Assembly (NCBI RefSeq): GCF_036967205.1
Contig: NZ_CP146022.1
Coordinates: 310,001-374,000 of the forward strand
Direction of reading: 5' to 3'
Source of the DNA: Streptomyces sp. Q6
GTDB taxonomy: Bacteria; Actinomycetota; Actinomycetes; Streptomycetales; Streptomycetaceae
DNA: 64,000 nt
Shown here: in pieces, positions 17,303 through 47,315 of the stretch
Position numbering within the stretch: the stretch's first letter is position 1
Layout of the letters: each line of letters starts with the position of its first letter
Program-made: the position numbers and the translations under genes
The notes under the pieces: model-generated
The model's database searches: none
What the model was told of the DNA's origin: nothing
What the model saw: only the letters and a program-made list of their open reading frames with translations

Positions 17303-17306
17303 CTAG
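16350..17306 (+). CDS. IS481-family DDE transposase
   Basis: 318 aa, the normal family size. GTG 16350 gives the natural start VSHRNARLTVHGRRLL; an upstream in-frame ATG (16308) lies in the terminal region and is less likely. Helix-turn-helix VAAEMGISRATAHKWL, then the rve catalytic core: Asp in HIDVKKLG, Asp in LTDNAWAYR, Glu in KVERFNRTLLEEWAY. It looks functional. Its last codon and stop (AGC TAG) are completed by the flanking CTAG target duplication, not by the element itself. Confidence 0.9.
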   Translation: MSHRNARLTVHGRRLLVERVASGRPVAHVAAEMGISRATAHKWLRRWRAEGGAGLADRSSRPLTTPHRTPASIEADVCRLRTDRKLGPARIGPILGLPASTVHRVLTRHRLNRLSWIDRPTGTVIRRYERDRPGELIHIDVKKLGRIPDGGGHKALGRQAGRVTRNNMGYDYIHSAVDDHSRLAYSEIHPDEKAATCAAFLTRAAAFFAEMGITRIERVLTDNAWAYRKGLAWKNVLAELGASGKLTRAYRPQTNGKVERFNRTLLEEWAYQRLYTTNDERTAALADFLHTYNHHRSHTALGGQPPITRVNNPAGQYS

Positions 17307-17343
17307 GGCGTTTCTTTCGGATCATCTAATCGTTGGTTGATGT

Positions 17344-18191
17344 GTGCCGTTGGCTGACGCTCAGTGGGCGAGGATCGAGCCGTTGCTGCCGGACCGGACA
17401 CCTCAGCGGGGTGGGCGATGGCGTGATCATCGACAGGTGTTCGACGCGATTGAGTTCAAGTACCGCACTGGCACTCCGTGGATGGACCTGCCCGATCGCT
17501 TCGGCTCGTGGAAGGGTGCCCACAACCGGCTGCGGAGATGGGTCGCCGACGGCACCTGGGAGAAGGTATTCACCGCCCTGCTCGCCCAAGCCGACGCCGA
17601 GGGCGACCTCGACTGGGTCGTCGCGGTCGACTCCACGATCGTCCGGGCTCATCAGCACGCCGCCGGGGCCCGTCAAAAGGGGCTGCTACGGCCGGCGAGC
17701 CGGACCATCATGCCCTCGGACGGTCCCGCGGCGGGCTGACCACGAAGATCCACCTCGCCGCGGACAGCCGATGCAGGCCGCTGGCGTTCGTCCTCACGCC
17801 CGGGCAGGCCGGGGACGCGCCCGCATTTCCCGCGGTTATGGCCCGATTGCGAGTGCCGCGGCCGATCGGTCGACCCCGGACAACACCGGATATGGTCCTG
17901 GCCGATAAGGCGTACTCGTCCCGCGCGATCCGGACCCGTCTGCGCGAGCGCGGGATCCGGGCGGTGATCCCCCAGCCCTCCGACCAGGCCGCGAATCGCA
18001 AGCGGCGCGGCAGCTGGGGCGGCCGACCGCCGGCCTTCGACCGCGAGGCCTACAAGCAGCGGAACACGGTCGAGCGGTGCATTAACAGGCTCAAGCAATG
18101 GCGCGGGCTTGCCACCCGCTATGACAAGAACGCCACCATCTACCTCGCCGGACTCCACATCGCAGGCATCTTTATCTGGTCGGCACGATAA
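17344..18191 (+). CDS. IS5-family transposase made by -1 frameshift (orfA + orfB)
   Basis: orfA runs 17344-17739 (GTG start, stop after PSDGPAAG); the second half lies in the -1 frame and ends at 18191. The frames join at the heptamer A AAG GGG (Q-K-G in orfA), a classic -1 slippery site, giving the usual sequence HAAGARQKGAATAGEP...GRSRGGLTTKIHLAAD. Catalytic DDE: Asp in VAVDSTIVRAH, Asp in LADKAYSS, Glu in NTVERCINRLKQW. Both halves are undamaged, so this copy is probably active. Closest group is the IS427-like part of the IS5 family. Confidence 0.85.
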
Positions 18192-18201
18192 CGCCGGAGC
18201 A

Positions 18202-18717
18202 TCACGGCCGGATGGCGATTGTGCTTACGGTGCCCTTGCCCCAGACAGTGGTGTTCATCAACACCTGGCCGTCGAGCGAGACGACCGTGAACTCCGGGAC
18301 GAACCGCTCCGTCAGCAGATCTCCCATCGAACTGCGGAACTGAGCGACCTCACTGCGCACCACGTCCCATTCGTCGAGAAGACGGACGCGAGCCCAGCCT
18401 CGATACTCCCCCTCGACGTCCTCGTCCTCAGGAAGCGCGAAGTCGACTGCGAGCAAGAACTCTCGTTCCTCGCTGAACAAGCCATGGTCCACCGCCATGC
18501 GATACCAGCTCGCATTGACCTTGTCCGCCAGGCCAGGCTCGTCCACATCCGCCACCTCATCCGGGCGAGAGTCGAACCGTCCGTGCTCGGGGCGTGCGCT
18601 CGCCGGGCTGTAGCCGGGCGGCAGCTCAGGCGTTCGGATCTCCCCGTAGACCCGTTGAACGAAGCGAAACCCGGCGGGCTTGAGCGCGACAGCCATGTCG
18701 CCATCAGTCATTGGCAC
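18202..18717 (-). CDS. cargo gene of IS element 1: unknown acidic protein
   Basis: 171 aa from GTG 18717, or 169 aa from the in-frame ATG 18711; no clear ribosome site for either. I do not recognise the family. The protein is acidic in its middle (LPEDEDVEGEYRGWARVRL) and ends with a beta-rich GKGTVSTIAIRP. The segment RLLDEWDVVRSEVAQFRSSM is helical. No signal peptide or membrane helix. It lies convergent to the transposase with 10 bp between stops, inside the perfect terminal repeats. The frame is intact, which suggests selection or recent capture. Confidence 0.65.
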   Translation of the reverse strand: MPMTDGDMAVALKPAGFRFVQRVYGEIRTPELPPGYSPASARPEHGRFDSRPDEVADVDEPGLADKVNASWYRMAVDHGLFSEEREFLLAVDFALPEDEDVEGEYRGWARVRLLDEWDVVRSEVAQFRSSMGDLLTERFVPEFTVVSLDGQVLMNTTVWGKGTVSTIAIRP

Positions 18718-18875
18718 GGCGGCAAGGGTAAGGCCTGCTCAAACGACCACAAAGGCATTTTCGGATGATCCGAAAGAAACGCCCTAGTCCTGGGCCTGGT
18801 AGCGACGGCGGACTGGCGCGGGCTTTACCCGCGCGGCCTGTGCCGGGGGTCTGCTCGTACGGCTACGACAGTCCG

Positions 18876-18953
18876 CTACTTGGGCGGGTTGGCCACGCCG
18901 ATCATCACGCCGATGGCGATCACTACCAACAGCCGGAACAACTTGCCGCGCAT
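18876..18953 (-). CDS. possible 25-aa single-pass membrane peptide
   Basis: ATG 18953, preceded by GAAGGGTG; the peptide starts MRGKLFRLLVVIAIG and ends ANPPK. It is one hydrophobic helix with a positively charged N-terminus. It could be a real small membrane protein or the remnant of a longer gene broken by the IS insertions. Confidence 0.3.
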   Translation of the reverse strand: MRGKLFRLLVVIAIGVMIGVANPPK

Positions 18954-19259
18954 CAGGCACCCTTCGGGCACCTCACCCGATGCCCGGCATCGCGTGTGCC
19001 GTGTCCACCTCACCGTATCGGCCGCACCGCGCCCCGAGAACGGTCTCCCCAGCCACCGCCCGCCGACGGGCAGCCCCCACCACGCCCCGGTGCTTCACGG
19101 CGCGCAGGGATCTGCGCCACGACGATGCGGATTCGGGGAGTGACGGGGGCAGCGGGGTCCCGGGGGCGGCGAAGCCCCCGGGTACCACGCCGCCCGACCA
19201 CAGGTCTGCACGCCCGGGTGGCGGGCGTGACGGTTCTTCACGAAAGCGCCTGCGCAAGT

Positions 19260-19280
19260 TACTTGTGATCAAATAAAGTA
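19260..19280. promoter_or_regulatory. AT-rich promoter/operator zone of the ImmA-IrrE operon
   Basis: TACTT-N11-AAGTA inverted repeat around TGTGATCA, 52 bp before the first gene of the two-gene operon. It is the only AT-rich stretch in the area and fits the promoter and an autoregulatory site for the XRE domain. Tentative. Confidence 0.3.
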
Positions 19281-19331
19281 CTGGCATCGGTATTGCGCTT
19301 CCTGGTGAAGCTGTGACCTGAAGGGTCGGCG

Positions 19332-20117
19332 ATGAACGCTGATGTGTCTGCTTGGGCCAGCGAGTTGTTCGGTGGCGAGGACATCGCCCTGACGGTCCGC
19401 GTGAAGATCGGCAGGGCCCTGAACGAGATGCAGGACAACGCCCGCGCCTCGCAGCAGGACGCCAGGGTGTCCTCCACACAGGTCCACGGGGTCGCCCGGT
19501 ACCGCGGGGCGTTCGAGCGGGTCAGCGAGGCGCTCAGCGATGTTCCGGGGGCTGAGCTGGTGAAGCCCAACGGCTTTCAGTTCGACCTGGTCCGGGTCGG
19601 TAACGGGCTGCTCTATCCCTTCTGCTTCTCCAAGAGGGACAGCCAGGTGCGGAGCGCACGGATCCAGAACGTGTGGTCCGTCATCCGGGAGCTGTTCGCC
19701 TTCGCCCCGCCTTCGGAGCAGGCCGATCTGTTCGGCCAGTACGCCTTCGACCCCGGCGCCGTCGAGTTGCGGCCGCGCCTCGCCGCGCTGCCTGCGGACA
19801 CCCGTCTGGTTCTCGTACCGTTCGCCTGCAACGCGGCCGGCCTGCTCAAGCCGTACTGGGGCGTGGCCGCGCTGGCGGACGAGACGGGAACCCTGGAGTG
19901 GACGATCGACCCCGAGCCGCTGCCGCTGCCGGACAGGGCACCCGCCGGACCGCTGCTTTCCGTTCCTCGTCAGGACGGTCGTCGCTGGGACGAGGAAGCG
20001 GAGCCCTCGGTCGTGCTGGCGCCGCGCAGGGACGCTGCGGGCGACCAGCACAATGATGCTCCAGTCGTCGAGATCACCCCTATCGATCGTCAGGCAAGCG
20101 AGAGCAATGACAACTGA
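19332..20117 (+). CDS. unknown partner protein of the XRE-ImmA/IrrE gene
   Basis: 261 aa. ATG 19332 with GAAGGG upstream. I do not recognise a family. It appears cytosolic: an N-terminal helical part (residues 1-60, with NEMQDNARASQQDARV), a globular core containing VKPNGFQFDLVRVGNGLLYP and WSVIRELFAF, and a Pro/Asp-rich, probably disordered tail. The stop overlaps the downstream ATG by 11 nt, so it is coupled to the XRE-ImmA/IrrE gene. By analogy with ImmA/IrrE systems it could be the toxin, the sensor or the protease substrate; which is not visible. Confidence 0.7.
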   Translation: MNADVSAWASELFGGEDIALTVRVKIGRALNEMQDNARASQQDARVSSTQVHGVARYRGAFERVSEALSDVPGAELVKPNGFQFDLVRVGNGLLYPFCFSKRDSQVRSARIQNVWSVIRELFAFAPPSEQADLFGQYAFDPGAVELRPRLAALPADTRLVLVPFACNAAGLLKPYWGVAALADETGTLEWTIDPEPLPLPDRAPAGPLLSVPRQDGRRWDEEAEPSVVLAPRRDAAGDQHNDAPVVEITPIDRQASESNDN

Positions 20118-21270
20118 TCACCCTGTCCTTCCGGGACTGGAAGACCGTGAAGCCGCGGCCAGTGCTGTGTCGGCGGCCTTCGACCCGCTGCGGCTCACCC
20201 AGGCTCGGCGCCTGGCTGGGCTGACGAAGAAGGACGTGGCCGAGCATGTGGGCGTGACGCCAGCGGCAGTCGGCCAGTACGAGACGGGAGTGTCCCGCCC
20301 GCGCCCGTACGTGGTCACGCTGCTCGCCAAGGTGCTCGACGTTCCGGCGGAGTTCTTCATCGCGGGCCGCCCCAGTGCTCGCCTCGATGCCTCGATGGCC
20401 CACTTCCGCAGTCTGCGCAGTACGCCCAAGGCGCACCGGGAACGGGCCCTGGCTTTTGCCGAACAGGTCTGGGAGTTGACGCACGCTCTGGAACGGCGGG
20501 TGCAGTTGCCGCTGGTCGACCTTCCCGGATTCGCCGGTGGCGAGGTGCACCCGGGAACGGCCCTGCCGTCGGAACCGATGTCGGCGGCTCAAGCTCTGCG
20601 ACGCGCCTGGGATCTGGGGGACGGGCCCGTCAGCCATCTGGTGCGGCGGATGGAAGCCCGCGGCATCGTGGTGGTCCTGCCCCTCTCGGCTGACCCGGCC
20701 GCGGCCACGGTCGACGCCTTCTCCTCACGCTCCGCCCGACCGCTGATCGTGCTCACGCACAACCGGGCCGACGACGTGTACCGGCACCGCTTCACGGCGG
20801 CGCACGAGTTGGGCCACCTGGTATTGCACGGGGACGCCACGGGGGACAGCAGGCAGGAACGGGAGGCGGATGCGTTTGCCGCCGAGTTCCTCACCCCGCG
20901 TGAGAGCATCCTGCCGCTGCTGCCGCGGCGGATGGACCTGGGACGGCTGGCCGAACTGCGAAGGTCCTGGGGGGTGTCCGTGCACTCCCTGGTCTACCGG
21001 TGTCGGGAACTGGGCCTGTTTTCCGATGCCACGGCGAGCAGGACCTATCAGCGACTGCGCGGTCTCGAGGGGCAGTCCGGGTTCGCTCCCGAAGCGGTTT
21101 CCGGCTTCCCCGGGGAACAGCCCAGCATGCTGACGCAGGCTTTTGACCTGGCGGAGCGTGAGACGGGTCTGAGCGTCCGAACGTTGGCCCGCGAACTGGC
21201 CTGGTCACAGGAACGCGTCATCACGTTGCTCGGCCTGCCGGACAGCCGGCCGGTGCTACGCCTGGTCTAG
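20107..21270 (+). CDS. XRE helix-turn-helix / ImmA-IrrE metalloprotease fusion
   Basis: 387 aa. ATG 20107 sits inside the end of the upstream gene. An XRE domain lies at about residues 20-78 (ARRLAGLTKKDVAEHVGVTP, then GQYETGVSRP). A zinc-protease domain follows with the HExxH motif in AAHELGHLVLHGD and a downstream Glu in READAFAAEFL, both typical of ImmA/IrrE. The C-terminal 100 residues are helical and may bind the partner. Such proteins cleave or inactivate a repressor or antitoxin after a signal. This one carries both the DNA-binding and protease parts. Confidence 0.85.
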   Translation: MTTDHPVLPGLEDREAAASAVSAAFDPLRLTQARRLAGLTKKDVAEHVGVTPAAVGQYETGVSRPRPYVVTLLAKVLDVPAEFFIAGRPSARLDASMAHFRSLRSTPKAHRERALAFAEQVWELTHALERRVQLPLVDLPGFAGGEVHPGTALPSEPMSAAQALRRAWDLGDGPVSHLVRRMEARGIVVVLPLSADPAAATVDAFSSRSARPLIVLTHNRADDVYRHRFTAAHELGHLVLHGDATGDSRQEREADAFAAEFLTPRESILPLLPRRMDLGRLAELRRSWGVSVHSLVYRCRELGLFSDATASRTYQRLRGLEGQSGFAPEAVSGFPGEQPSMLTQAFDLAERETGLSVRTLARELAWSQERVITLLGLPDSRPVLRLV

Positions 21271-21457
21271 CTCGCTCTCAGAGCGGCGAACCGGGCGTGC
21301 ACCATCTCCATGAACTCGGGGTGCGGCCCCGGATTCTCGGTGGGGAGTGAGGCGCGGATCACTCACGCTTCGATGTCACGTTTGGTCGCACTGGATGCAC
21401 TCCCTAACGACCGCGGTGCAGCCTCGTGCCACGGCGACCGAGTCCTAGGGGGATGAC

Positions 21458-21685
21458 TTGCCGGAGACAGTCCTTGGAGTGGCCAGCTTCGCGGTCCTGT
21501 TGAGTACCCGGCTGCTCTACCTGTGGATCCGCAGCCGCGCCCAGGTGCAGTTGGTCGAGTTACGCCAGCGGGGCACAAGCGAACGAGTCCGGGCTCTGCC
21601 CCCGGGCAGTGTGGTTACCGAACTTCGCCACGGCGAGGAGTTGCGCTTCGAAATCGGTCCGGCGGACAGGAACGACGATGTCTGA
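21458..21685 (+). CDS. 75-aa small membrane-anchored protein of sigma/pentapeptide operon
   Basis: TTG 21458 with GGGGG six bases upstream; no ATG or GTG alternative in frame. One N-terminal membrane helix (VLGVASFAVLLSTRLLYLWI) followed by a basic turn and a beta-rich soluble part (VRALPPGSVVTELRHGEEL). Its last codons overlap the sigma factor start by 8 nt. I do not recognise the family; arrangement and size recall short constant components of conflict-type operons near sigma factors, which is only an analogy. Confidence 0.6.
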   Translation: MPETVLGVASFAVLLSTRLLYLWIRSRAQVQLVELRQRGTSERVRALPPGSVVTELRHGEELRFEIGPADRNDDV

Positions 21686-22226
21686 CCACGGAACTCGGAT
21701 CGCGCCCACGCGCCCCTCCGACTCAGCGCCCCACCGCGCCACTCAACTGGAGTTCGCTCAGTTTTACAGCCAGCACATGGCCAAGCTGGTGCGGCACCTG
21801 ATGCGACAAGGAGCCAGCATCCATGAGGCGACAGAGGCGTCCCAGGCAGCCTTCACCGAGGCCTTTGTGAAGTGGGAGACGATCGAGCACCCGGCTGCAT
21901 GGCTGCGTCAGGTGTCCCTGCGCCTCTACTGGCGTCGCCACAGCCACCGTGAGGAACCAGTCCAGGAGATTCCTGAACTGCCGGGCGGACCGTGCCCGCT
22001 GCAGCAGGTGGAACTCAAAGAGCAAGAGGCCAGGGTGTGCGCGGCTCTAGCCAGCCTGCCCCCGCTGCAGCGCCAAGTCCTGGCCTGGCACCTGGACGAG
22101 TTCTCCACCACCGAGATCTCCGTCGCTCTCGGCATGACCCCGGAGGCTGTGCGACAGAACCTGAGCCGCGGCCGTGCTCGCCTTAAAACGATCCTGCTGT
22201 CCTCGACTGACGGAGGCGGACGATGA
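21678..22226 (+). CDS. ECF-type RNA polymerase sigma factor
   Basis: 182 aa. ATG 21678. Region 2 is FAQFYSQHMAKLVRHLMRQG through FVKWETIEHPAAWLRQV; region 4 is LASLPPLQRQVLAWHLDEFS with helix-turn-helix EISVALGMTPEAVRQNLSRG. There is no anti-sigma gene beside it; the preceding small membrane protein or the following pentapeptide protein could take that role. Overlaps the next gene by 4 nt. Its targets are unknown. Confidence 0.85.
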   Translation: MSDHGTRIAPTRPSDSAPHRATQLEFAQFYSQHMAKLVRHLMRQGASIHEATEASQAAFTEAFVKWETIEHPAAWLRQVSLRLYWRRHSHREEPVQEIPELPGGPCPLQQVELKEQEARVCAALASLPPLQRQVLAWHLDEFSTTEISVALGMTPEAVRQNLSRGRARLKTILLSSTDGGGR

Positions 22227-22903: not shown

Positions 22904-22925
22904 TCACACGCCGCGAGCGCCGGGG

Positions 22926-23290
22926 CTACTCACCGGAGAGGTAGCACTTCTGTTCCTCCACGACCGTGGCCTGCGCCTGCTCTGTGCGGCGGTCGGCAAG
23001 CCCGGGCGAACCGGGCGACGGCGCACCGCTCGGCCGGGGTGAGGTCGTCGATGGTCGCCTTGACAGCCTCGTGGACGCCGGAGCTCGCGTCGCTCGCGGG
23101 TCTCGTCCTCCGGCATCTTCAGCTCGTTGATCAGCCAGTCCAGGCTGCCGTACGGGGCGCAGACGTCCAGCGGCCACCGACAGCGCAGATAGACGCCCAG
23201 GTCCGTCGCGGACAGCCGGAGGTCGGTGATGGGGTCGTGGTGCACGACCAGCGCGTACGGGACGGAGAGATCGCTGCGCGGCCGGCCAAG
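22926..23290 (-). pseudogene. frameshifted remnant of an unknown gene
   Basis: Three minus-strand frames must be joined to read one protein: DLSVPYALVVHHDPITDLRL...INELKMPEDETRE, then VKATIDDLTPAERCAVARFARA, then QAQATVVEEQKCYLSGE and stop TAG at 22926. At least two indels are needed. The middle looks like a small helix-turn-helix-type hypothetical common on integrative elements, but I cannot name it. Confidence 0.45.
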
Positions 23291-24047: not shown

Positions 24048-24061
24048 GCGGTCAGTTCTCC

Positions 24062-27556: not shown

Positions 27557-28605
27557 ACGAGCTCGTGCACGGTAGGCGGTGAGACGTCGAGCCTGGATGG
27601 TTGATCATGGTCGGGTGGTGGGGAACTCGACGCGCGCGGTGATCATCGGCAATCGGCGGATCACGGGGCTGACTGCCGGAGTGATTGCTGAACTCGTCGA
27701 GGAGATCGGACCGTTGTGGCATGAGCGTCATCAGGCGAGGCTTGCCGCTCGCCCGCGGCAGAGGGCTGTGGGCGCAGGCGCGAAGTACCGGCTGGTGTTC
27801 GTCGACCGGCTGCTGGCCACGCTGGTCCATCTTCGTCACGGGGTCACCCATGATGTGCTGGCCTGCTGGTTCGGAGCGGACCGTTCCACCGTCACCCGGG
27901 CCATCGGTGAGGTGCGGCCCCTGCTCGCCGAGCGGGGCTGCACCGTCAGCCCCGACGTGCGGCTGCGGTCTCTCGCTGAGGTTGTCGACCATCTCGGCGC
28001 GAGCGGGGCGACCGGCATCGTCGACGGCACCGAGATCCGGGTCCGCCGGCCCGCTGCCGGACGCAAGGACCGCGACAAGTTCATCTCCGGCAAGAACAAG
28101 CAGAACGCCGTCAAGTCCATGGTGGTCACGGACGGCGAAGGCCGCGTGCTGTGGTGCAGCCCGGCCCGTCCCGCAAGCTGCGCGGACATCACCCATGCCC
28201 GCCAGTTAGGGCTGGTCAACCTCTTGGCCGACGGGCCTGCAGTCGAGATCCTGGCTGATGCCGGCTACCAGGGACTGGGCGCCCAGACCGGTGGCCGGGT
28301 GGTGACACCACCGCACCGCAAGTTCAAGAAGAACGCCCCGGACTGGTACGAAGAGATGCACGAGCGCCAGCGCAAGGCGCACTCATCACGACGTATCCGT
28401 GTCGAGCACGGCATCGCCCATCTGAAGAACTGGCGGGCCCTGGCCCGCCACCTCGGCCGCCGCGAGCACATGAGCGACACCGTCCAAGCCATCGCCGGCC
28501 TGCTGTCCCACCAGCAGACCGCGGGCCTGAACCCGACATGGCAGATGTGAAGCTGGGTCGCACCGAAGTTCGCGACGTCTCACCGCCTACCGTGCACGAG
28601 CTCGT
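27557..28605 (+). mobile_element. IS5-family element (DDE_4 type), complete
   Basis: The two ends match perfectly as inverted repeats for 35 bp including the TA (27555-27589 and 28573-28607), an unusually long terminal repeat starting ACGAGCTCGTGCACGG. TA flanks both sides; the right TA is also the left TA of the next element, so the two elements sit end to end. Confidence 0.85.
27597..28550 (+). CDS. IS5-family transposase (DDE_4 superfamily)
   Basis: 317 aa from ATG 27597; an in-frame GTG at 27579 lies within the terminal repeat. Segment HDVLACWFGADRSTVTRAIG is the helix-turn-helix; catalytic residues fall in GIVDGTEIRVRRP, EILADAGYQGLG and the Glu in RRIRVEHGIAHLKNW. The single frame is intact, unlike the split transposases of the other IS5-type elements here, so this copy may be active. 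Confidence 0.85.
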   Translation: MVDHGRVVGNSTRAVIIGNRRITGLTAGVIAELVEEIGPLWHERHQARLAARPRQRAVGAGAKYRLVFVDRLLATLVHLRHGVTHDVLACWFGADRSTVTRAIGEVRPLLAERGCTVSPDVRLRSLAEVVDHLGASGATGIVDGTEIRVRRPAAGRKDRDKFISGKNKQNAVKSMVVTDGEGRVLWCSPARPASCADITHARQLGLVNLLADGPAVEILADAGYQGLGAQTGGRVVTPPHRKFKKNAPDWYEEMHERQRKAHSSRRIRVEHGIAHLKNWRALARHLGRREHMSDTVQAIAGLLSHQQTAGLNPTWQM

Positions 28606-28664
28606 TAGGCAGTTTCTTACGGATCACTGCGTGAGCCCCGAGCTGTTGGTGGTGTGATGGCTTC

Positions 28665-28977
28665 ATGCGACCTGAGCACTGTGTGACCAGGAACCACATT
28701 GAGGTGTGGCAAGGACGAGTGCTGCCGTCGGGGCCGGAACGGATCAGGTTCGGGACGGTGCTGCGCGGCTCACTCCTACCGATCCTGGTCTGGACCGGAG
28801 CCGCGTGCTTTCGTGTACTTCGTCTACAACCCGCTCGTAGCGACGGTTCTCGGCGGTCTCTTCGCGTTGTCGTTCCTCGTGGGGTTCACGCTGCGTCGCA
28901 GGGCGAAGCACTCGGTCCGCTGCAGCGTCTACGGTGCGCTGGGCGGGGTGCTCGACAAGTCCATGGCTGGGTTCTGA
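28665..28977 (+). pseudogene. cargo gene of IS element 2: small two-helix membrane protein, frameshifted
   Basis: The first half (IEVWQGRVLPSGPERIRFG, SLLPILVWTGA) and second half (AFVYFVYNPLVATVLGGLFA, FLVGFTLRRRAKHS) are in different frames, joined by one indel near 28800; the stop is at 28975. Two membrane helices are predicted. It is on the transposase strand, between the left terminal repeat and the transposase. Family unknown. Confidence 0.5.
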
Positions 28978-29014
28978 GGCGTTGCGGCGCAGGCGACCCC
29001 TCGTTGTATTGAGC

Positions 29015-29856
29015 GTGTTGACCGACGCCCAGTGGGCCAGGATCGAGCCCCTGTTGCCGGACCGGACTCCCCGCCGAGGGGGAAGGTGGCGTGATCACCG
29101 GCAGGTGATCGACGCGATCGCCTGGAAGTACCGGACTGGATCTCCGTGGATGGATCTGCCCGCGGAGTTCGGCTCGTGGAAAGGCGCCTACAGCCGTCTG
29201 CGGAACTGAGCGATTGACGGGACCTGGGAGCGAGTGTTCACCACCCTGCTGGCCCAGGCGGACGCCGATGAGGACCTGAGCTGGGTGGTATCCGTTGACT
29301 CCACGGTCGTTCGGACACATCAGCATGCGGCTGGAGCCCGCAAAAAGGGGCTCCAGCCGACGAGCCAGCGGACCACGCCATCGGCCGCTCCCGAGGCGGG
29401 CTGACTACGAAGATCCACCTCGCCGCCGATGGCAACTGCCGGCCGCTGGCTTTCGTGCTTACGGCCGGACAGGCTGGCGACGCGCCCGCCTTCACTGAAG
29501 TGATGGCGAGACTGCGCGTCCCCCGACGTGTCGGGCGTCCCCGGATTCGGCCCGACATGGTTCTGGCCGACAAGGCGTACTCCTCCCGGGCCATCCGCGA
29601 ACACCTGCGACGGCGAGGGATTCGGACGGCCATCCCGGTACCAGCCGACCAGCAGGGCCACCGGCTCCGTCGGGGCAGCCAGGGCGGCCGGCCGCCTGCC
29701 TTCGACCGCGAGGCATACAAGCAGCGCAACACCGTCGAGCGATGCATCAACCGCCTCAAACAGTGGCGAGGGCTTGCCACTCGCTACGAGAAGACCGCCA
29801 CCGTCTACCTCGCCGGACTCCACGTCGCAGCCATCTTCATCTGGTCAGCGCGATGA
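29015..29856 (+). pseudogene. IS5-family transposase (orfA+orfB) with nonsense mutation
   Basis: orfA from GTG 29015 matches the element-1 transposase (TDAQWARIEPLLPDRTPRRG) but has TGA at 29207-29209 where element 1 has TGG (RLRRW versus RLRN-stop). orfA would otherwise end at 29404, and orfB continues in the -1 frame to 29856 through the slippery A AAG GGG in RKKG. The catalytic residues of orfB (LADKAYSS, NTVERCINRL) are intact. Inactive unless read through. Confidence 0.8.
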
Positions 29857-29912
29857 TCCGAGAGAAACTGCCTAGTCGCGGCCGGACGGCCCCCGCCTGG
29901 GCGTGGGCCGCG

Positions 29913-40915: not shown

Positions 40916-42819
40916 GCGGCACCGCCCCACGCGCCCAACTGGTGCGCGATGCCACCTTCGTGCACCTCGACCTCGACGGCGGCATCACCGGCTCGCGCGG
41001 CACGTCCCCCGACGGACTGTTCGTCCGGGACGGCCGCCACCTGAGTCACTGGCGGCTCACCGTCGACGGTGGCGCGCCCACCGCGCTCTCGCCGCTCGCA
41101 CCGACCACGGACGGTGCCGGGGAGTGCGTCCTCACTCCGCGGGGCACCCGCGACGCGCCGCCCGCGTACACCGTCTTCCGCCGTCAGGCGGTCGCGGCGG
41201 GCGAGTTCACCGACGTACTCGACCTGGTGAGCAACAGCCCCGATCCGGTCGTCGCCGAGGTCGTCGTCGCCGTCGACGCCGACTTCGCCGACACCTTCGA
41301 ACTGCGCGCCGACGACCGCCACTACCCCAAGCCGGACGCGGTGCGCCGTGCGCGCCGCACGGCCGAGGGCGTGGAGTTCGACTACCGCCGGGCCGACTGG
41401 CACGCACGCACCACGGTGACCGCCGAGCCCGCGCCCGACGCCGTGCACGCCGAGGAGGACGGCCCGCACCGGCTCGTGTGGCGGGTGGCCCTCGCCCCGC
41501 ACGGCCGGGCCGAGCTCCGGCTGCGTGTCGTCGCGCACCCGCACGGCGGCCCGCAGCGCGCCGCGGCCGGGGCGGACGAGCCCGTACGCGCACCCGCACT
41601 CGGCGACGACGATCTGGGGCGGGCCTGCGCCCGGGGCCTCGCCGATCTGGACCTGCTGACGATCCCGGCCACCGGGGTCGACGGCGAGACCGTCGCGGTC
41701 CCCGCGGCGGGCGTGCCCTGGTTCCTTACCCTGTTCGGCCGCGACTCGCTGCTGACCTCGTACTTCATGCTGCCCTACCGGCCCGCTCTGGCGGCCGGCA
41801 CGCTCAGCGCGCTCGCCGCCGTCCAGGGGCGGGAGTACGACGCCGTGCGCGGCGAGCAGCCCGGCCGCATCGTGCACGAGACCCGGCGCGGGGAACTCGC
41901 CCACTTCGGGCAGATTCCGTACGGCCGCTACTACGGGACGATCGACGCCACCCCGCTGTTCCTGGTGCTGCTGCACGCCCATTACGAGACGACCGAGGAC
42001 CCGGCCCTCGCCGCCCGCCTGGAGCAGCACGCCCGGTCCGCGGTCGACTGGATGCGCGGGGACGGCGGCCTGACCGAGCACGGGTACCTGGTGTACAGCC
42101 CGGACCCGGGCGGCCTGATCAACCAGAACTGGAAGGACTCCGACGGAGCCGTCTGCGACAAGGCCGGCACCCAGGCACGCGGCCCCATCGCCGTGTCCGA
42201 GGCCCAGGGCTACGCCTACGACGCCCTGCGCCGCACGGCCCGGCTGGCCGACGAGGTGTGGCAGGACCCCGCCTACGCGCAGGAGTTGGATCGTCTGGCG
42301 GACGCACTGCGCGCCCGGTTCGCCCGGGACTTCTGGCTGCCGGAGGACGACTTCCCGGCGCTGGCGCTCGACGGCCACGGCAACCGGGCGGACGCGCTGG
42401 CCTCCGACGCCGGACATCTGCTGTGGTCCGGCATCCTCGACGACGACCGGGCGCGGCGCGTGGGACGCAGGCTGCTGGAGGCGGACTTCTTCTCCGGCTG
42501 GGCGATCCGCACCCTCGCCGCGGACCAGCGGCCCTACCACCCGCTGTCGTACCACCGGGGCAGCGCCTGGCCGCACGACAACGCCGTCATCGCGCTCGGC
42601 CTGGCCCGCTACGGACTCGTGGACGAACTGCGCCGGGTGGCGACCGGGTTGCTCGACGCGGCGGCCCACCACGGCCACCGGCTGCCCGAGGTCCTCGGCG
42701 GCTACGCGCGCGCCGCCTCGTCCACGCCGGTCCCCTATCCCCACTCGTGCTCCCCGCAGGCATGGGCGGCCGCGACGCCGTGGGCGCTGCGCACCGCCCT
42801 GGAGTCGGTGGGCGGTTGA
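40912..42819 (+). CDS. amylo-alpha-1,6-glucosidase/glycogen-debranching-type enzyme
   Basis: 635 aa. ATG 40912 overlaps the upstream stop (ATGA). An N-terminal beta-sandwich (GDE_N type: GLFVRDGRHLSHWRLTVDGG) is followed by an (alpha/alpha)6 barrel with PWFLTLFGRDSLLTSYFMLP, QNWKDSDGAVCDKAG and YHRGSAWPHDNAVIALGL. This architecture is usual for cytosolic debranching-type glucosidases. With the GH63-like enzyme it probably hydrolyses the imported oligosaccharide. Followed by two terminator hairpins. Confidence 0.8.
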   Translation: MSGTAPRAQLVRDATFVHLDLDGGITGSRGTSPDGLFVRDGRHLSHWRLTVDGGAPTALSPLAPTTDGAGECVLTPRGTRDAPPAYTVFRRQAVAAGEFTDVLDLVSNSPDPVVAEVVVAVDADFADTFELRADDRHYPKPDAVRRARRTAEGVEFDYRRADWHARTTVTAEPAPDAVHAEEDGPHRLVWRVALAPHGRAELRLRVVAHPHGGPQRAAAGADEPVRAPALGDDDLGRACARGLADLDLLTIPATGVDGETVAVPAAGVPWFLTLFGRDSLLTSYFMLPYRPALAAGTLSALAAVQGREYDAVRGEQPGRIVHETRRGELAHFGQIPYGRYYGTIDATPLFLVLLHAHYETTEDPALAARLEQHARSAVDWMRGDGGLTEHGYLVYSPDPGGLINQNWKDSDGAVCDKAGTQARGPIAVSEAQGYAYDALRRTARLADEVWQDPAYAQELDRLADALRARFARDFWLPEDDFPALALDGHGNRADALASDAGHLLWSGILDDDRARRVGRRLLEADFFSGWAIRTLAADQRPYHPLSYHRGSAWPHDNAVIALGLARYGLVDELRRVATGLLDAAAHHGHRLPEVLGGYARAASSTPVPYPHSCSPQAWAAATPWALRTALESVGG

Positions 42820-42825
42820 GACCGT

Positions 42826-42860
42826 GGGGTGGCGTCCGCACCTGACCCGGACGCCACCCC
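42826..42860 (+). terminator. terminator hairpin after debranching-enzyme gene
   Basis: Perfect 13-bp stem GGGGTGGCGTCCG / CGGACGCCACCCC with a 9-nt loop, starting 7 nt after the stop. Confidence 0.75.
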
Positions 42861-42871
42861 GCCGGGGTCCC

Positions 42872-42902
42872 GTGCCCGCCGTGCCGGAAAACCGGCGGGC
42901 AC
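42872..42902 (+). terminator. second hairpin
   Basis: 10-bp perfect stem GTGCCCGCCG / CGGCGGGCAC, 11 nt after the first hairpin; a tandem back-up terminator is likely. Confidence 0.55.
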
Positions 42903-42903
42903 G

Positions 42904-42928
42904 GCGTACGTCCGTGCTCCAGGGGTAG
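42904..42928 (+). promoter_or_regulatory. SigB-like promoter of the 47-aa peptide gene
   Basis: GCGT-N15-GGGTAG fits the GNNT-N14-16-GGGTA pattern of Streptomyces SigB/SigH-type promoters, 55 bp before the small gene's ATG. Confidence 0.45.
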
Positions 42929-42982
42929 TCGTAGCGCTACAGACGGACAACGTGCCCGACACAGCGCCCCCTTGGAGGTCTC

Positions 42983-43126
42983 ATGCCGGGAATCCTGAAC
43001 CGGATCAAGCAGTACAGCCGTACCCCGCAGGGTCGGCGGACCATCGCGTCGGCTCGGCGGGCGGCCGCCGACCCCCGCAAGCGCGCGCAGGCCCGCTCCT
43101 GGCTCGGCCGGCTGCGGCGCCGCTGA
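42983..43126 (+). CDS. 47-aa highly basic peptide
   Basis: ATG 42983 follows GGAGG at ideal spacing. The peptide starts MPGILNRIKQYSRTPQGRR and is about one third Arg/Lys, ending RSWLGRLRRR. No membrane helix. Small basic proteins of this kind are widespread but unassigned in Streptomyces; a nucleic-acid-binding role is plausible. It lies just upstream of a SigB-class sigma factor gene and has its own SigB-like promoter, suggesting stress expression. Confidence 0.65.
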   Translation: MPGILNRIKQYSRTPQGRRTIASARRAAADPRKRAQARSWLGRLRRR

Positions 43127-43158
43127 ACGCCCCTCAAGATCTTTTTTTGAATTCGTTT

Positions 43159-43183
43159 GAGTAGGGTCGCGGTTCCTGGGTAC
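43159..43183 (+). promoter_or_regulatory. SigB-like promoter of the sigma factor gene
   Basis: GAGT-N15-GGGTAC, 52 bp before ATG 43236, matches the SigB-type consensus closely, including GGGTAC. Suggests the sigma factor is autoregulated or made by a related stress sigma factor. Confidence 0.55.
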
Positions 43184-43235
43184 GCGGAGTCACGCACCCG
43201 CACAAGCACGTCAACAGACAGGGAAGGTCGGGCGA

Positions 43236-44090
43236 ATGACCGCGCTGACGGAAACCGGACCCCTCATGCACGCCACGGCGGAAGAACTGCTCGAAGCCGG
43301 ATGCGCGCAAGAGGTCGCGCCCCGTGACGCCCGCACCCTGTCACGCCGCTTCTTCGACCGCCTGGCGAACCTCGAAGAGGGCACGCACGAGTACCAGTAC
43401 GTGCGCAACACCCTCATCGAGATGAACCTCTCCCTCGTGCGGTACGCGGCGGGCCGGTTCCGTCATCGCGGTGCCGAGGAGATGGAGGACATCGTCCAGG
43501 TCGGCACGATCGGCCTGATCAAGGCGATCGACCGGTTCGAGCTGACGCGCGAGGTCGAGTTCGCCACGTTCGCCGTGCCGTACATCACCGGCGAGATCAA
43601 GCGGTTCTTCCGGGACACGTCGTGGGCCGTGCACGTTCCGCGCCGCCTCCAGGAGGCCCGCGTCGAACTGGCCAAGGCCAACGAGGAGCTCGCCACGCGG
43701 CTCGGCCGCACGCCGAGCACCGCCGAACTGGCCGAGCTGATGCAGTTGCCCGAGTCGGAGGTCGTCGAGGCCCAGAAGGCGTCCAACGGCTACCACGCCG
43801 CCTCGATCGACGCCACGATCGGCGCCGGGAACGACGAGAGCGACACCCTGCTCGCCGACTTCATCGGTGAGGAGGACCAGCGCATGGAGCTCGTGGAGGA
43901 CTTCCAGTCCCTCGCGCCGCTGCTGGCCGAACTCGACGAGCGGGAGCGGGACATCATCCGGCTCCGGTTCGCCGAGGAGCTCACGCAGGCGGAGATCGGC
44001 GAGCGTCTCGGCATCTCGCAGATGCACGTCTCCCGGCTGCTGAGCCGGCTCCTGCTGCGCCTGCGCACGGGCCTGCTCGCCACCGACTGA
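43236..44090 (+). CDS. SigB/SigF/SigG-family alternative sigma factor
   Basis: 284 aa. ATG 43236 with GGAAGG upstream. Region 2 (NTLIEMNLSLVRYAAGRFRH, EEMEDIVQVGTIGLIKAID, FELTREVEFATFAVPYITGE), region 3 (VPRRLQEARVELAKANEELA) and region 4 (LDERERDIIRLRFAEELTQA, IGISQMHVSRLL type) are complete, the size and shape of the Streptomyces SigB/SigF group. These direct general stress or developmental genes. No anti-sigma gene is adjacent. Confidence 0.9.
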   Translation: MTALTETGPLMHATAEELLEAGCAQEVAPRDARTLSRRFFDRLANLEEGTHEYQYVRNTLIEMNLSLVRYAAGRFRHRGAEEMEDIVQVGTIGLIKAIDRFELTREVEFATFAVPYITGEIKRFFRDTSWAVHVPRRLQEARVELAKANEELATRLGRTPSTAELAELMQLPESEVVEAQKASNGYHAASIDATIGAGNDESDTLLADFIGEEDQRMELVEDFQSLAPLLAELDERERDIIRLRFAEELTQAEIGERLGISQMHVSRLLSRLLLRLRTGLLATD

Positions 44091-44095
44091 CACGC

Positions 44096-44123
44096 GCGGT
44101 GCCCGGCCCACGCCGGGCACCGC
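44096..44123. terminator. terminator hairpin after sigma factor gene
   Basis: Perfect 12-bp stem GCGGTGCCCGGC / GCCGGGCACCGC with a CCAC loop, 5 nt after the stop. Confidence 0.75.
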
Positions 44124-44138
44124 CGTTACGGTGGAAGC

Positions 44139-44372
44139 ATGTTCAGCTCACGCAAGGTTCACAAGGACGACGTGTGGGACGGCGTCGTCGTCGACAAGAC
44201 GCGCAGGGCGCCGGACGGCTCGAACCTGTACCACTACGTCGAGCTCCGGCTGACCGACGGCTCCCGCAAGAAGATCCGCGTCGAGAAGGAACTGTGGGAG
44301 AACCTCGACGCGGGTGACCGCCTCGTGAAGGAGGCGGGCGTCACGGCTCCCACGAAGGCGCCCCCGGGCTAG
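44139..44372 (+). CDS. 77-aa hypothetical protein (DUF7489-like)
   Basis: ATG 44139. Beta-rich small protein: KDDVWDGVVVDKTRRAPDGS, LYHYVELRLTDGSRKKIRVE, then a short tail. Common small Streptomyces hypothetical. It is convergent with the MerR gene and the two share the palindrome CTAG (44369-44372) as stop codons on opposite strands. Confidence 0.7.
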   Translation: MFSSRKVHKDDVWDGVVVDKTRRAPDGSNLYHYVELRLTDGSRKKIRVEKELWENLDAGDRLVKEAGVTAPTKAPPG

Positions 44373-44800
44373 TCGGCGGCGGCCGTCGGGTCCCACAGCC
44401 CGGTGGCCGTACCGCGGGCCACGTGCTCGGCGTAGACGCCGACCTTCAGGGCGATGACGGAGCGGCACTCCTCCAGGGCGCGGATCTGGTCCTCGACGCG
44501 GCGCTGGTGGGCGTCGAGGAGTCGCAGCCGCTCCGGCTCGTTGCCCGGGCCCCGCCGGACCAGTTCGGCGAACCGCTTCAGTTCGGCGAGGGGCATTCCC
44601 GATTCCCGCAGCCGGACGCAGATCCCCAACCAGCCGACATCGGTGGGGCTGTAGCGGCGCCGGCCGCCCGCCGTGCGGTGCACCGGGCCGACCAGCAGGC
44701 CCTCACGCTCGTAGAAACGCAGGGCGTGCACGCTCAGGCCGGTGCGGTCGGCCACCTCGCCGATGCCGAGCGATTCGGTGGAGGTCTCGGTCGTCGCCAT
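44369..44800 (-). CDS. MerR-family transcriptional regulator
   Basis: 143 aa, ATG 44800. Winged helix at the N-terminus: LGIGEVADRTGLSVHALRFY, EREGLLVGPVHR, GGRRRYSPTDVGWL; then a dimerisation coiled coil (LLDAHQRRVEDQIRALEEC). Typical of organic-ligand or stress-type MerR proteins controlling a divergent dehydrogenase. The intergenic region has a 19-bp-spaced promoter with an internal dyad, the usual MerR-activated layout. Confidence 0.9.
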   Translation of the reverse strand: MATTETSTESLGIGEVADRTGLSVHALRFYEREGLLVGPVHRTAGGRRRYSPTDVGWLGICVRLRESGMPLAELKRFAELVRRGPGNEPERLRLLDAHQRRVEDQIRALEECRSVIALKVGVYAEHVARGTATGLWDPTAAAD

Positions 44801-44817
44801 GCGGGCCACTCTAGGGC

Positions 44818-44848
44818 TTGATCTAGACCTCCCTCTAGCTCGTAGCGT
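44818..44848 (+). promoter_or_regulatory. MerR-type promoter/operator of the dehydrogenase gene
   Basis: -35 TTGATC and -10 TAGCGT with the elongated 19-bp spacer typical of MerR targets. Inside the spacer is the dyad CTAGA-N6-TCTAG (44823-44838). Transcription would start at about the ATG (44856), so the mRNA is probably leaderless. Confidence 0.65.
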
Positions 44849-44855
44849 CCTCGGC

Positions 44856-45839
44856 ATGAGCACACAGACCGCTACCGCACAGCACCCGATCGACTCCCCC
44901 TTCTCCGCGGCTTCCACCGCCGACGAGGTCATGGCCGGGGTCGACCTCTCCGGCCGGACCGCCGTCGTCACCGGCGGCTACTCCGGGCTCGGCCTGGAGA
45001 CCGTACGGGCCCTCGCGGCCGCCGGGGCCCGGGTCATCGTCCCCGCGCGCCGCCCCGAGTCCGCCCGGGAGGCGCTCGCCGGACTCCCCGGCGCCTCCTG
45101 CGAGATCGTCCCCATGGACCTCACCGACCTCGCCGACGTCCGCTCCGCCGCCGCGCGCATCCGGGAGGCGACCGACCGGATCGACTTCCTCATGGCCGTG
45201 GCCGGGGTGATGGCCACCTCGGAGCGGCGCGTCGGGCCCGGCTGGGAGTACCAGCTTGCCGCCAATCACCTGGGGCACTTCGCCTTGGTGTCCGAGCTGT
45301 ACCCCTTGCTGCGCGCCGCGCACGGCGCACGCGTCGTCGTCTACAGCTCCGCCGGTCACGCGATCACCGACTTCCGCTGGCACGACCCGCACTTCCGTAC
45401 CGGCTACGACCGCTGGGAGGCGTACGGCCAGGCGAAGACCGCCAACGTCCTGTTCGCCGTCCACCTCGACGCCATCGGCCGCGACGACGGCGTCCGGGCC
45501 TTCGCCCTCCACCCGGGCAGCATCATCACCGGCCTCCAACGGGAACTGACCCAGCCGGAGCTGATCGATCTGGGCTGGGTGGACGAGCGGGGCACCGTGA
45601 TCGGCGCGGGCTTCAAGACCCCGTCGCAGGGCGCCGCCACCGGTCTGTGGGCGGCGACGTCCCCGCTCCTCGCCGACCGCGGGGGCCTCTACCTGGAGGA
45701 CTGCGAGGTGGCGCGGGTCACGTACGACGACCGGCCCATGGACGAGGGCCGGGTCCGCGGCTACGCCGTCGATCCGGCCTCGGCCGCACGCCTGTGGGAG
45801 CTGTCCGTCGCGGCGACCGGGGCCGGGCCGATCGGCTAG
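44856..45839 (+). CDS. short-chain dehydrogenase/reductase
   Basis: 327 aa, ATG 44856. Cofactor motif TGGYSGLGLE, NAG replaced by AVAGVMA, catalytic Ser in VVVYSSAGHA and the Tyr-x-x-x-Lys pair in YGQAKTAN. It resembles the retinol-dehydrogenase/WW-domain-oxidoreductase-like group. Divergent from and probably induced by the MerR regulator, it may detoxify a carbonyl compound. The TAG stop is part of the CTAG where a cargo-carrying IS inserted; the protein end is intact. Confidence 0.85.
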   Translation: MSTQTATAQHPIDSPFSAASTADEVMAGVDLSGRTAVVTGGYSGLGLETVRALAAAGARVIVPARRPESAREALAGLPGASCEIVPMDLTDLADVRSAAARIREATDRIDFLMAVAGVMATSERRVGPGWEYQLAANHLGHFALVSELYPLLRAAHGARVVVYSSAGHAITDFRWHDPHFRTGYDRWEAYGQAKTANVLFAVHLDAIGRDDGVRAFALHPGSIITGLQRELTQPELIDLGWVDERGTVIGAGFKTPSQGAATGLWAATSPLLADRGGLYLEDCEVARVTYDDRPMDEGRVRGYAVDPASAARLWELSVAATGAGPIG

Positions 45840-45982
45840 GCCGTGTTTGATGGATCTTTCCCGGCTCCTGATAGATCGGTGAGTCGTGTGCTCCGGGGTT
45901 GCGGCAGGGTGCCCGCCGCGTCGTCTGAAGGGGCGGCCATGATGGTGCCGAGTAACAGCAACTCCGACGAAGGCGGCATGAC

Positions 45983-46288
45983 ATGGCCTATGGCTACATC
46001 GGTTCGATGAAGACCCAGCCCGGCAAGCGCGACGACGTGGTTGCGATCCTGCTGTCCGGAGCCGATAGCCTCCGCGACCTTGGCTGCAGAAGCTACGTGG
46101 TGGGCCTGGCCGCCGATGACTCGGACACGATCGTGGTCACGGAGGTCTGGGAATCTAAGGATCACCACGACGCATCCCTGCGGTTGCCCGAGGCCAAGGA
46201 AGCGATCGCTGCCGCCATGCCCATGCTCACCGGCGAGTTCTCCAGTCGCGAACTGGTTGTCGCCGGCGGCCTCGGCGCTGGTGACTGA
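45983..46288 (+). CDS. cargo gene of IS element 3: ABM-domain (quinol monooxygenase-like) protein
   Basis: 101 aa. ATG 45983 with GAAGG upstream. The sequence MAYGYIGSMKTQPGKRDDVV, SYVVGLAADDSDTIVVTEVW and KEAIAAAMPMLTGEF is a standard antibiotic-biosynthesis-monooxygenase (ferredoxin-like) domain, cofactor-free oxygenases of small quinone-type molecules. The frame is intact although the IS transposase is not. Stops 4 nt before the convergent transposase end. Its possession by an IS is unexpected. Confidence 0.75.
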   Translation: MAYGYIGSMKTQPGKRDDVVAILLSGADSLRDLGCRSYVVGLAADDSDTIVVTEVWESKDHHDASLRLPEAKEAIAAAMPMLTGEFSSRELVVAGGLGAGD

Positions 46289-46292
46289 TGCC

Positions 46293-47147
46293 TCATGGTT
46301 TGAGCCAGAGGAAGATGGCTGCGACATGGAGTGCGGCCTGACAATTCGTCGCGAGTTTGTCGGTACGCATGGCAATGCCGCGCCATCGCTTGAGCCGGTT
46401 GATGCAGCGTTCGACAGCGTTGCGGAGGCGGTAAGCATCACGATCGAGCGCGACCGGGCGGCCGCCGCGTGGGCCGCGGCGCTTCCGGTTGGCCTGCTGG
46501 TCAGCGGGTTCGGGGATGACCGCGCGGGTTCCGCGCCTGCGCAGGTGGGCGCGGATCGCCCGAGATGAGTAGCGCGGTCGGCGAGCACGGTGTCGGGACG
46601 GACACGAGGTCGACCGACTGGGCGCGGGACACGGGTAGCGGCCATGACACGCTCGAACTGCGGTGCGTCACCCGCTTGTCCGGCGGTGACTACGAATGCG
46701 ATCGGCGGCATCGGCCGTCGGCGGCCAGGTGGACTTTCGTGCTCACTCCGCCGCGGGATCGGCCGAGAGCGTGGTCGTGCGGTTCACCGGCCGGAGCCCC
46801 CTTTTCGCGGCACCGGCGGCGTGCTGGGGGGCACGGACGACCGTGGAATCGACGCCAACAAGCCAGTCCAGATCGCCATCCACGTCCGCGCGGGCCTGCA
46901 AAGCGACGAGGACGCGGTGCCAGGTGCCATCGCGGGCCCAACGGGTGAACCGGTCAAACACCGTCTGCCAGGGAGGGCACTGGTCCGGCACGTCACGCCA
47001 GGCGAGGTTGTTCCGGTACTTGAACGCCACCGCGTCGATCACCCGCCGGTGATCCGTCCACCGCCCGCCCCGACGAGGCGTCCGGTCCGGTAGTAGCGGC
47101 TCGATCAGTCTCCAATGGCCATCGCTCAGGCCCCCACGAACAGTCAC
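46293..47147 (-). pseudogene. IS5-family transposase (orfA+orfB), orfB frameshifted
   Basis: orfA is 46743-47147 (LSDGHWRLIEPLLPDRTPRR to ADPAAE); orfB lies in the -1 frame (GRSRGGVSTKVHLAADGRC). Besides that programmed shift, one base is lost in the LADRA-YSSRAI catalytic segment, where the frame changes to THLGRSA; the correct continuation (RNAVERCINRLKRW, AAIFLWLKP) resumes in another frame and stops at 46293. No longer functional by itself. Confidence 0.8.
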
Positions 47148-47315
47148 ACCACACTAAAACGACCACCTGATCCACCAGCCACGGCCTAGGTGGACACGCT
47201 CGCTCCGGCCGTGGCGCGTCGGGGAAAGCCACCCGCCCTCGGAATTCCGGCGAATCCGCCGCCGGAGGTGGCGGCAACGGGATGGCCGGCCCGACCGGGC
47301 TCTCTCCAAGGGGCG

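What the first reader, a model, noticed from the sequence alone, without database searches (positions are those of the whole stretch)
17306..47186. Three IS5-family elements that each carry a different non-transposase gene
The elements at 17306-18784, 28608-29872 and 45839-47186 share a split, frameshifted transposase and short terminal repeats, yet each encloses a different extra gene: an unknown acidic 171-aa protein (minus strand, 3' side), a two-helix membrane protein (plus strand, 5' side, now broken) and an ABM-domain monooxygenase-like protein (convergent, 3' side). In element 1 the 20-bp repeats are perfect and enclose both genes, which shows they moved as one unit. IS with passenger genes are known in general, but three different cargos in one lineage within 30 kb suggests a cargo-capturing IS group in Streptomyces.
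Basis: partly seen in the sequence, partly recalled or inferred. Interest (0 to 1): 0.7.

Follow-up and report, generated by a model that had tools for sequence, protein, structure and literature searches.

The report
Jumping genes carrying captured passenger genes
Small jumping genes in soil bacteria of the genus Streptomyces have repeatedly picked up an ordinary neighbouring gene and now move it around as one package, and some of these packages carry genes that look like antidotes to rival bacteria's toxins.

Summary
E1 (17306-18784), E2 (28608-29872) and E3 (45839-47186) are IS427-type IS5 elements. TA-flanked inverted repeats (20/20, 17/20, 15/18) enclose both a transposase and an extra gene. 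Only E1 looks intact: E2 has a stop in orfA and a broken cargo, and E3's orfB is in pieces.

The idea of a cargo-capturing IS group is largely supported. Related elements in the loci I fetched enclose about 19 cargo types. Five pairs of elements are homologous repeat to repeat, cargo included. Four of these pairs show no similarity in the flanks held. The fifth, two 1,273-bp barstar-carrying copies in the window's own genome (99.8% identical), has a paralogous stretch (66-73%) further out on one side. E3's capture rests on anatomy alone.

I infer three steps: the IS lands at CTAG, sometimes a stop codon; a second IS-like end appears beyond the gene; the inner end decays. Junctions, relics and second-IS remnants (6 of 24 elements) support this in part.

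Cargo 1 belongs to a family linked to these IS in three parts of its tree, and stand-alone members of other branches often follow RHS/PT-HINT toxins. With barstar, this suggests IS-borne orphan immunity genes. Kind: passenger-carrying IS, a new variant.

The parts
17306..18784 (+). E1: complete IS427-type IS5 element with cargo; TIRs 17306-17325 and 18765-18784; TA duplicated (CTAG at 17303 and 18784)
   Evidence: the CTAG end of the IS481 target is not interrupted in 4 of 4 other own-genome copies fetched
17344..17739 (+). E1 orfA (DUF4096, IS4/5 transposase N-part)
   Evidence: PF13340 E 3.6e-26
17675..17682 (+). A4G4 run, likely -1 frameshift site between orfA and orfB
   Evidence: sequence; frame change; frameshift motif of the IS427 group described in PMC3281130 (passages); slippage not tested
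17478..18191 (+). E1 orfB reading frame (DDE domain); stop TAA 18189-18191
   Evidence: PF01609 E 8.6e-19
18202..18717 (-). E1 cargo c1, acidic 171 aa, convergent with orfB (10 bp between stop codons); member of a family of which other branches sit beside PT-HINT toxins
   Evidence: model pLDDT 92.6
28608..29872 (+). E2: IS427-type element with 5'-side cargo; TIRs 28608-28627 and 29853-29872
28665..29012 (+).
   Evidence: relatives align in two frames; the 25-nt left end is exact upstream of c2 in L072 and has 5, 6 and 8 mismatches in L073, L070 and L077; not found in 13 of 18 loci
29016..29856 (+). E2 transposase region (start approximate); in-frame TGA in orfA; orfB stop overlaps the right TIR (the ordinary arrangement)
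45839..47186 (-). E3: IS5-type element with cargo between orfB and the outer end; TIRs 45839-45856 and 47169-47186; CTAG at 45836 and 47186
45983..46288 (+). E3 cargo: ABM-domain protein, convergent with orfB (4 bp between stop codons)
   Evidence: PF03992 E 2.5e-13
46743..47147 (-). E3 orfA
   Evidence: PF13340 E 3.4e-24
46293..46700 (-). E3 orfB remains, in several frames (decayed; right boundary approximate)

Best explanation
E1, E2 and E3 are passenger-carrying insertion sequences of the IS427 type of the IS5 family. The transposase, probably made by a -1 frameshift between orfA and orfB, acts on the two outermost repeats, so the gene inside travels with it. Shown by sequence comparison for related elements: the whole unit including cargo recurs at different places and the homology stops at the repeats. 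Inferred capture route: (1) the IS lands at CTAG, sometimes the TAG stop codon of a gene, beside that gene's 3' end; (2) a second end of the same type appears on the other side of the gene, in some cases clearly from a second IS copy; (3) the inner end decays, so that only the larger unit is mobile. Inferred benefit: some cargos (barstar; the c1 family) are immunity-type genes that protect the host, and with it the element. For E1 the acidic 171-aa protein is most likely such an orphan immunity protein.
For: Units: L312 vs L315 96.4%, L381 vs L382 89%, L131 vs L206 86% and L252 vs L264 in three adjoining blocks of 90-95% run repeat to repeat, with no similarity between the flanks held. L359 vs L360 in the own genome: 99.84% over 1,273 bp, CTAG to CTAG. 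L195/L200 share the unit from the left TIR into orfB. Capture route: in convergent cargos the stop codons are 0-16 bp apart (L359/L361 rows corrected by one base). In L270, L252, L267, L131 and L206 the cargo's TAG lies in a CTAG at the inner end. Inner ends match the repeat 18/22 (L132), 16/22 (L173), 14/22 (L206), 11/22 (L153) and 8/22 or fewer (E1, L130, L207, L129, L131), random 5.5 +/- 2.0; L311 keeps a 3-mismatch inner repeat. IS body lies behind the outer repeat in 6 of 24 elements at shuffle z above 5. Immunity: barstar PF01337 E 3.5e-8; c1-family genes directly after RHS/PT-HINT proteins; three label changes forced in the c1 tree. dN/dS 0.11-0.60 in 13 of 13 cargo pairs.
Against: No second complete cargo-bearing copy of E1 or E3 was found; 0 of 385 (E1) and 0 of 289 (E3) matching plasmid records cover 80% of the element. 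L359 and L360 share a paralogous stretch (66-73%) starting 205 and 299 bp outside one end, so duplication plus gene conversion is not fully excluded for that pair. In 18 of 24 elements, E1-E3 included, no IS body was found behind the outer repeat. Only 3 of 12 printed stand-alone c1 ends and 1 of 3 Kc1-type ends are CTAG, and chance was not tested. 0 of 16 E1-type stand-alone c1 loci have a HINT domain in the flanks held. The three tree changes could in principle be one gain and two losses. c1 has no clear solved-structure match. Several cargos (MerR, EthD, sigma/VOC, ABM) are not immunity-like; PADLOC gave no hit for 10 of 10 cargos.
Confidence: 0.77

Rival explanations
1. Chance nesting: an ordinary IS and a separate short repeat-only element or a second IS inserted on either side of a host gene, with no mobile unit.
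For: Short elements with the same repeats exist (164-481 bp pairs in G049, G065, G076), and no second exact E3 pair was in the listing.
Against: Four pairs of cargo-bearing elements are homologous repeat to repeat with no flank similarity.
Confidence: 0.12
2. The cargos are old, co-evolving accessory parts of particular IS lineages (for example transposition regulators), not captured host genes.
For: cB has a repeat beside it in 4 of 6 places and a transposase (whole or fragment) in 3 of 6; the three barstar transposases form one clade.
Against: Cargo types are mostly unrelated to each other; relatives of c1, ABM, barstar and c2 without an IS beside them exist; cD sits on opposite sides of the transposase in L155 and L130.
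Confidence: 0.12
3. Collapsed composite transposons only: every outer end is the remnant of a second IS copy.
For: 82-86 bp of IS body behind the outer repeat in four Kc1 elements and about 120 bp in L173, same orientation; L153 inverted and weaker.
Against: No such remnant (z above 5) in 18 of 24 elements, E1, E2 and E3 included; five of these reach z 3.4-4.2.
Confidence: 0.3

Closest known systems
IS427 group of the IS5 family (e.g. IS1248; PMC3281130, passages)
   Same: DDE transposase in two overlapping frames with a frameshift motif, short TIRs, mostly 2-bp target duplication, about 830-865 bp in that paper
   Different: Here 1.27-3.0 kb because extra genes lie between the transposase and one (or both) outer repeats
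Transporter IS / IS with passenger genes (ISsaga paper PMC3129680, passages)
   Same: IS with its own transposase plus a gene unrelated to transposition
   Different: Many different cargos in one IS group of one genus, capture on either side, graded decay of the inner end, recurrent immunity-type cargo
Mobile insertion cassettes, MICs (PMC3129680 and PMC3281130 passages)
   Same: IS-type repeats enclosing a passenger gene
   Different: MICs lack a transposase; E1-E3 have one. L314 (280-aa ORF, only an orfB fragment) fits a MIC
Transposable modules, TMos (PMC3281130 passage)
   Same: One IS copy mobilising adjacent DNA
   Different: Here the outer end is a good copy of the TIR, fixed in the element
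CDI-system transposon of Burkholderia thailandensis (PMC6350997, start of abstract in the listing)
   Same: Mobile DNA carrying a polymorphic toxin/immunity system
   Different: There the whole system is carried; here a lone immunity-type gene on an IS

Membership tests
IS5 family, IS427 type | DDE transposase of the IS4/5 type | tested here: met
   PF13340 and PF01609; E3 decayed
IS5 family, IS427 type | Two overlapping frames with frameshift motif | tested here: met
   Frames; A4G4 at 17675-17682; slippage itself not tested
IS5 family, IS427 type | Short TIRs and 2-bp (TA) target duplication | tested here: met
   no joined single-copy empty site was found
IS5 family, IS427 type | Assignment by ISfinder comparison | not testable with these tools
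   ISfinder is not held
IS with passenger gene (transporter IS) | Passenger gene enclosed with the transposase by one pair of TIRs | tested here: met
   E1, E2, E3
IS with passenger gene (transporter IS) | Unit moves together with passenger | tested here: inconclusive
   Supported for relatives; no second complete copy of E1 or E3; E2 shares TIR, cargo and start of orfA with L136
Mobile insertion cassette (MIC) | No transposase gene inside | tested here: not met
   E1-E3 contain transposase genes
Barstar family (cargo of own-genome relative L359) | Barstar domain | tested here: met
   PF01337 33.7 bits, cut-off 23.4; inhibition of an RNase not tested
Polymorphic-toxin immunity proteins (E1 cargo c1) | Gene directly downstream of a toxin gene in the family | tested here: inconclusive
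   Met for L253, L256, L260; HINT domain in 11 of 44 family loci, 3 of which supplied the queries, but 0 of 16 E1-type loci

The most novel reading that the evidence does not exclude
IS427-type insertion sequences of Streptomyces are a vehicle for orphan immunity genes. They repeatedly dock at CTAG stop codons of immunity genes (the c1 family about three times, barstar, perhaps cD and c102), take them up by gaining an outer end, and spread protection against rivals' toxins, which in turn keeps the IS in the population.
Probability: 0.35. Interest if true: 0.78.

Novelty: new variant of a known kind. Interest (0 to 1): 0.6.

Why it matters
IS are usually seen as carrying only their own transposase, with cargo needing two IS copies or a larger transposon. 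If this holds, one IS group captures and spreads single host genes over and over, with intermediate stages of capture still readable. Lone immunity genes found without their toxin would then have a concrete route of spread. The own-genome barstar element (two near-identical copies) is a ready system for testing both points.

Tried and rejected

Limits: the listings are truncated, facing pairs were counted by eye, and loci were chosen for odd or missing partners or for cargo relatives, so no rate for the whole group is claimed. In the c1 tree I labelled L263 'no IS' although one search shows a 32% transposase match and a 4-mismatch K repeat beside it. In one search the orfB stop of L359 and L361 was placed one base too early; corrected gaps are 1 and 0. 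In one search two of 39 loci were left out (L151 no match, L154 too short). In one search the repeats of L359 and L382 scored 12/18, a score that 8 of 300 random windows reach or exceed, so their borders rest on homology rather than on the repeats.
Full report
WHAT IS THERE. The window lies at 310-374 kb of an 8.57-Mb contig of genome G000. The genus is taken as Streptomyces because same-genus handles match named Streptomyces contigs (for example G049 and NZ_CP034539.1). E1 has perfect 20-bp repeats, TA on both sides, an intact-looking orfA/orfB pair and a convergent 171-aa acidic gene. E2 has its cargo on the 5' side of the transposase; the cargo is frameshifted relative to relatives and orfA has an in-frame stop. 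E3 has an ABM gene convergent with a decayed orfB and repeats of 15/18. The split transposase is the normal layout of the IS427 group (PMC3281130, passages seen).

RELATED ELEMENTS. I scanned 199 genomes of the genus for the E1/E2 repeat and for a second repeat type, 'K' (one control hit in the rows). Facing repeat pairs in the truncated listings, counted by eye: one search gave 24, of which 16 of ordinary length (902-903 bp; 9 of them from one genome), 3 short (164-481 bp) and 5 long (1.27-1.9 kb, E1 and E2 among them). One search gave 12: 1 ordinary (1.0 kb), 1 short (191 bp) and 10 long (1.3-3.0 kb; 9 with a transposase, 1, L314, with only a fragment). I fetched 80 stretches (60 for unpaired repeats, 20 a mix of odd pairs and cargo relatives) and 20 for the K type.

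CARGO TYPES. Cargo-bearing elements enclose about 19 cargo types: the c1 family, c2, ABM, a 111-aa protein (cB), a 119-aa protein (cD), MerR, MerR+EthD, a cupin-like 356-aa protein (label recalled; no Pfam family above cut-off), DUF6924, DUF5958, barstar, sigma factor+two VOC proteins, and unnamed proteins of 196, 103, 310, 145, 102, 87 and 73 aa. The unnamed ones are the longest or best-placed open frames and may include wrong choices.

MOBILITY OF THE UNIT. L312 vs L315 are 96.4% identical repeat to repeat, L381 vs L382 89%, L131 vs L206 86%, and L252 vs L264 90-95% in three adjoining blocks; the flanks held for these four pairs show no similarity (some flanks are short, 103 bp the shortest). 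Own genome: L359 and L360, on contig 2 about 25 kb apart, are 99.84% identical over 1,273 bp from CTAG to CTAG, barstar cargo included. Their adjoining flanks differ, but one side carries a collinear paralogous stretch (73% and 66% identity) starting 205 and 299 bp out, so I rate this pair below the other four. A third, 5'-truncated copy (L361) lies on contig 1. Two public plasmids annotate a barstar gene convergent with an IS5 transposase, with facing repeats of 14/18 and 15/18 at TA; among 300 random windows 4 reached 13 or more.

HOW CAPTURE MAY WORK. (1) Docking. In convergent 3'-side cargos the two stop codons are 0-16 bp apart (with the correction; E1 10, E3 4; in L132 the cargo frame runs into the inner repeat). 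In L270, L252 and L267 the cargo's TAG is the CTAG directly behind the inner-repeat relic, and in L131 and L206 the cargo's TAG is also a CTAG at the inner end. Of stand-alone relatives printed, 3 of 12 c1 genes (L236, L237, L209) and 1 of 3 Kc1-type genes (L260) end in CTAG. No chance test was made. (2) New outer end. In L270, L264, L252 and L267, 82-86 bp of orfB 3' end lie behind the outer repeat in the same orientation; L173 has about 120 bp, and L153 a left end in inverted orientation: 6 of 24 elements at shuffle z above 5, 60 shuffles each. The other 18, E1-E3 included, do not pass; five of them reach z 3.4-4.2. (3) Inner-end decay. At the orfB stop the repeat still matches 18/22 in L132, 16/22 in L173, 14/22 in L206, 11/22 in L153, and 8/22 or fewer in E1, L130, L207, L129 and L131 (random 5.5 +/- 2.0); cargo-bearing K elements scored 9-14 at the best of 25 offsets, without a random baseline. 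L311 keeps a 3-mismatch inner repeat. The steps are inferred from anatomy, not seen happening.

REPEATED CAPTURE OF THE SAME FAMILIES. In the c1-family tree of 39 rows the well-supported branches force three changes of the IS label: E1's c1, Kc1, and a second gene in L252/L264, which carry c1-family genes on both sides of the transposase. Three gains are the simplest reading, because IS group and side differ; one gain and two losses are not excluded, and several long branches make some placements unsure. cD sits 5' of the transposase in L155 and 3' of it in L130, and has a repeat within about 20 bp of its end in 8 of 18 places. The 102-aa cargo is on the 5' side in L312/L315, while relatives at 36-46% identity on two plasmids are convergent with an IS5 transposase; a plausible repeat was seen in one (13/18) and none in the other. 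The transposase tree (37 rows, 27 with cargo) needs 7 label changes, and 34 of 500 shuffles are as low, so cargo is only weakly clustered.

WHAT THE CARGO DOES. In 13 of 13 cargo pairs dN/dS is 0.11-0.60 (one pair includes a copy without an IS, several share a member, and no test against 1 was made), against 0.08-0.12 in 3 transposase pairs; this suggests that the proteins are kept. The own-genome cargo is a barstar (PF01337, E 3.5e-8). Stand-alone c1-family genes L253, L256 and L260 directly follow 903-974-aa proteins with RHS core and PT-HINT domains (3 of 7 upstream proteins examined), and a HINT domain lies in 11 of 44 family loci, 3 of which supplied the queries. L260 with L262 is the stand-alone sister group of Kc1. 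So Kc1 is probably an immunity protein. For E1's c1 the inference is weaker: 0 of 16 E1-type stand-alone loci have a HINT domain in the flanks held, and the fold gave no clear solved-structure match. E3's ABM and the MerR, EthD and sigma/VOC cargos do not fit the immunity theme.

TARGETS. E1 sits at the CTAG end of an IS481 element (PF13011, E 3.5e-13); in four other own-genome copies the same end is not interrupted and is followed by other DNA. E2 and the barstar copy L361 adjoin the same terminal sequence...CGAGCTCGTTAG, of one further IS (DDE_Tnp_4 beside E2; for L361 the match is of the end sequence only). Both fit a preference for CTAG/TTAG.

VERDICT. Real, recurring as a unit in relatives, and a new variant of a known kind (IS with passenger genes). 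For E3 the capture claim rests on anatomy alone.

Noticed in passing
L359:1832-3104 and L360:2315-3587 (own genome, contig 2), L361 (contig 1): A barstar-carrying IS5 element in the window's own genome: two full copies 99.8% identical and a third 5'-truncated copy.
   Followed up: yes
L252:2861-5176 and L264:2812-5348: IS elements with c1-family genes on both sides of the transposase, each reading inward from an outer repeat (S. toyocaensis, S. caelestis).
   Followed up: partly
window 28561-28611 and L361 right flank: E2 and the barstar IS copy adjoin the same terminal TTAG sequence, which suggests that one IS end serves as a landing site for others.
   Followed up: partly
window 16308-17306: IS481 transposase (PF13011) of an element with five near-identical copies found in the genome, the four others each ending at CTAG; E1 sits in that CTAG.
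   Followed up: partly
window 1-64000: CTAG occurs 23 times, against 250 expected for equal base use (the expectation is not corrected for G+C content).
   Followed up: no
L314:735-2070: Repeat-bounded unit with a 280-aa ORF that looks like a phosphotransferase of the aminoglycoside type (label recalled, no Pfam hit) and only an orfB fragment, so possibly a mobile insertion cassette.
   Followed up: no
L253, L256, L260 (upstream of the c1-family genes): RHS/PT-HINT toxin-type proteins directly upstream of c1-family genes, which points to an immunity family; the two members scanned (E1 c1 and L141) match no Pfam model.
   Followed up: partly
L135, L160, L165, L133, L134: Short repeat-only elements (tens to about 480 bp) with the same ends as the IS, a possible source of outer ends.
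   Followed up: no
L142, L143, L139 and other c2 loci: c2 genes occur without a transposase match in the stretches held, some with a decayed IS left end upstream, so a cargo may outlive its IS.
   Followed up: partly
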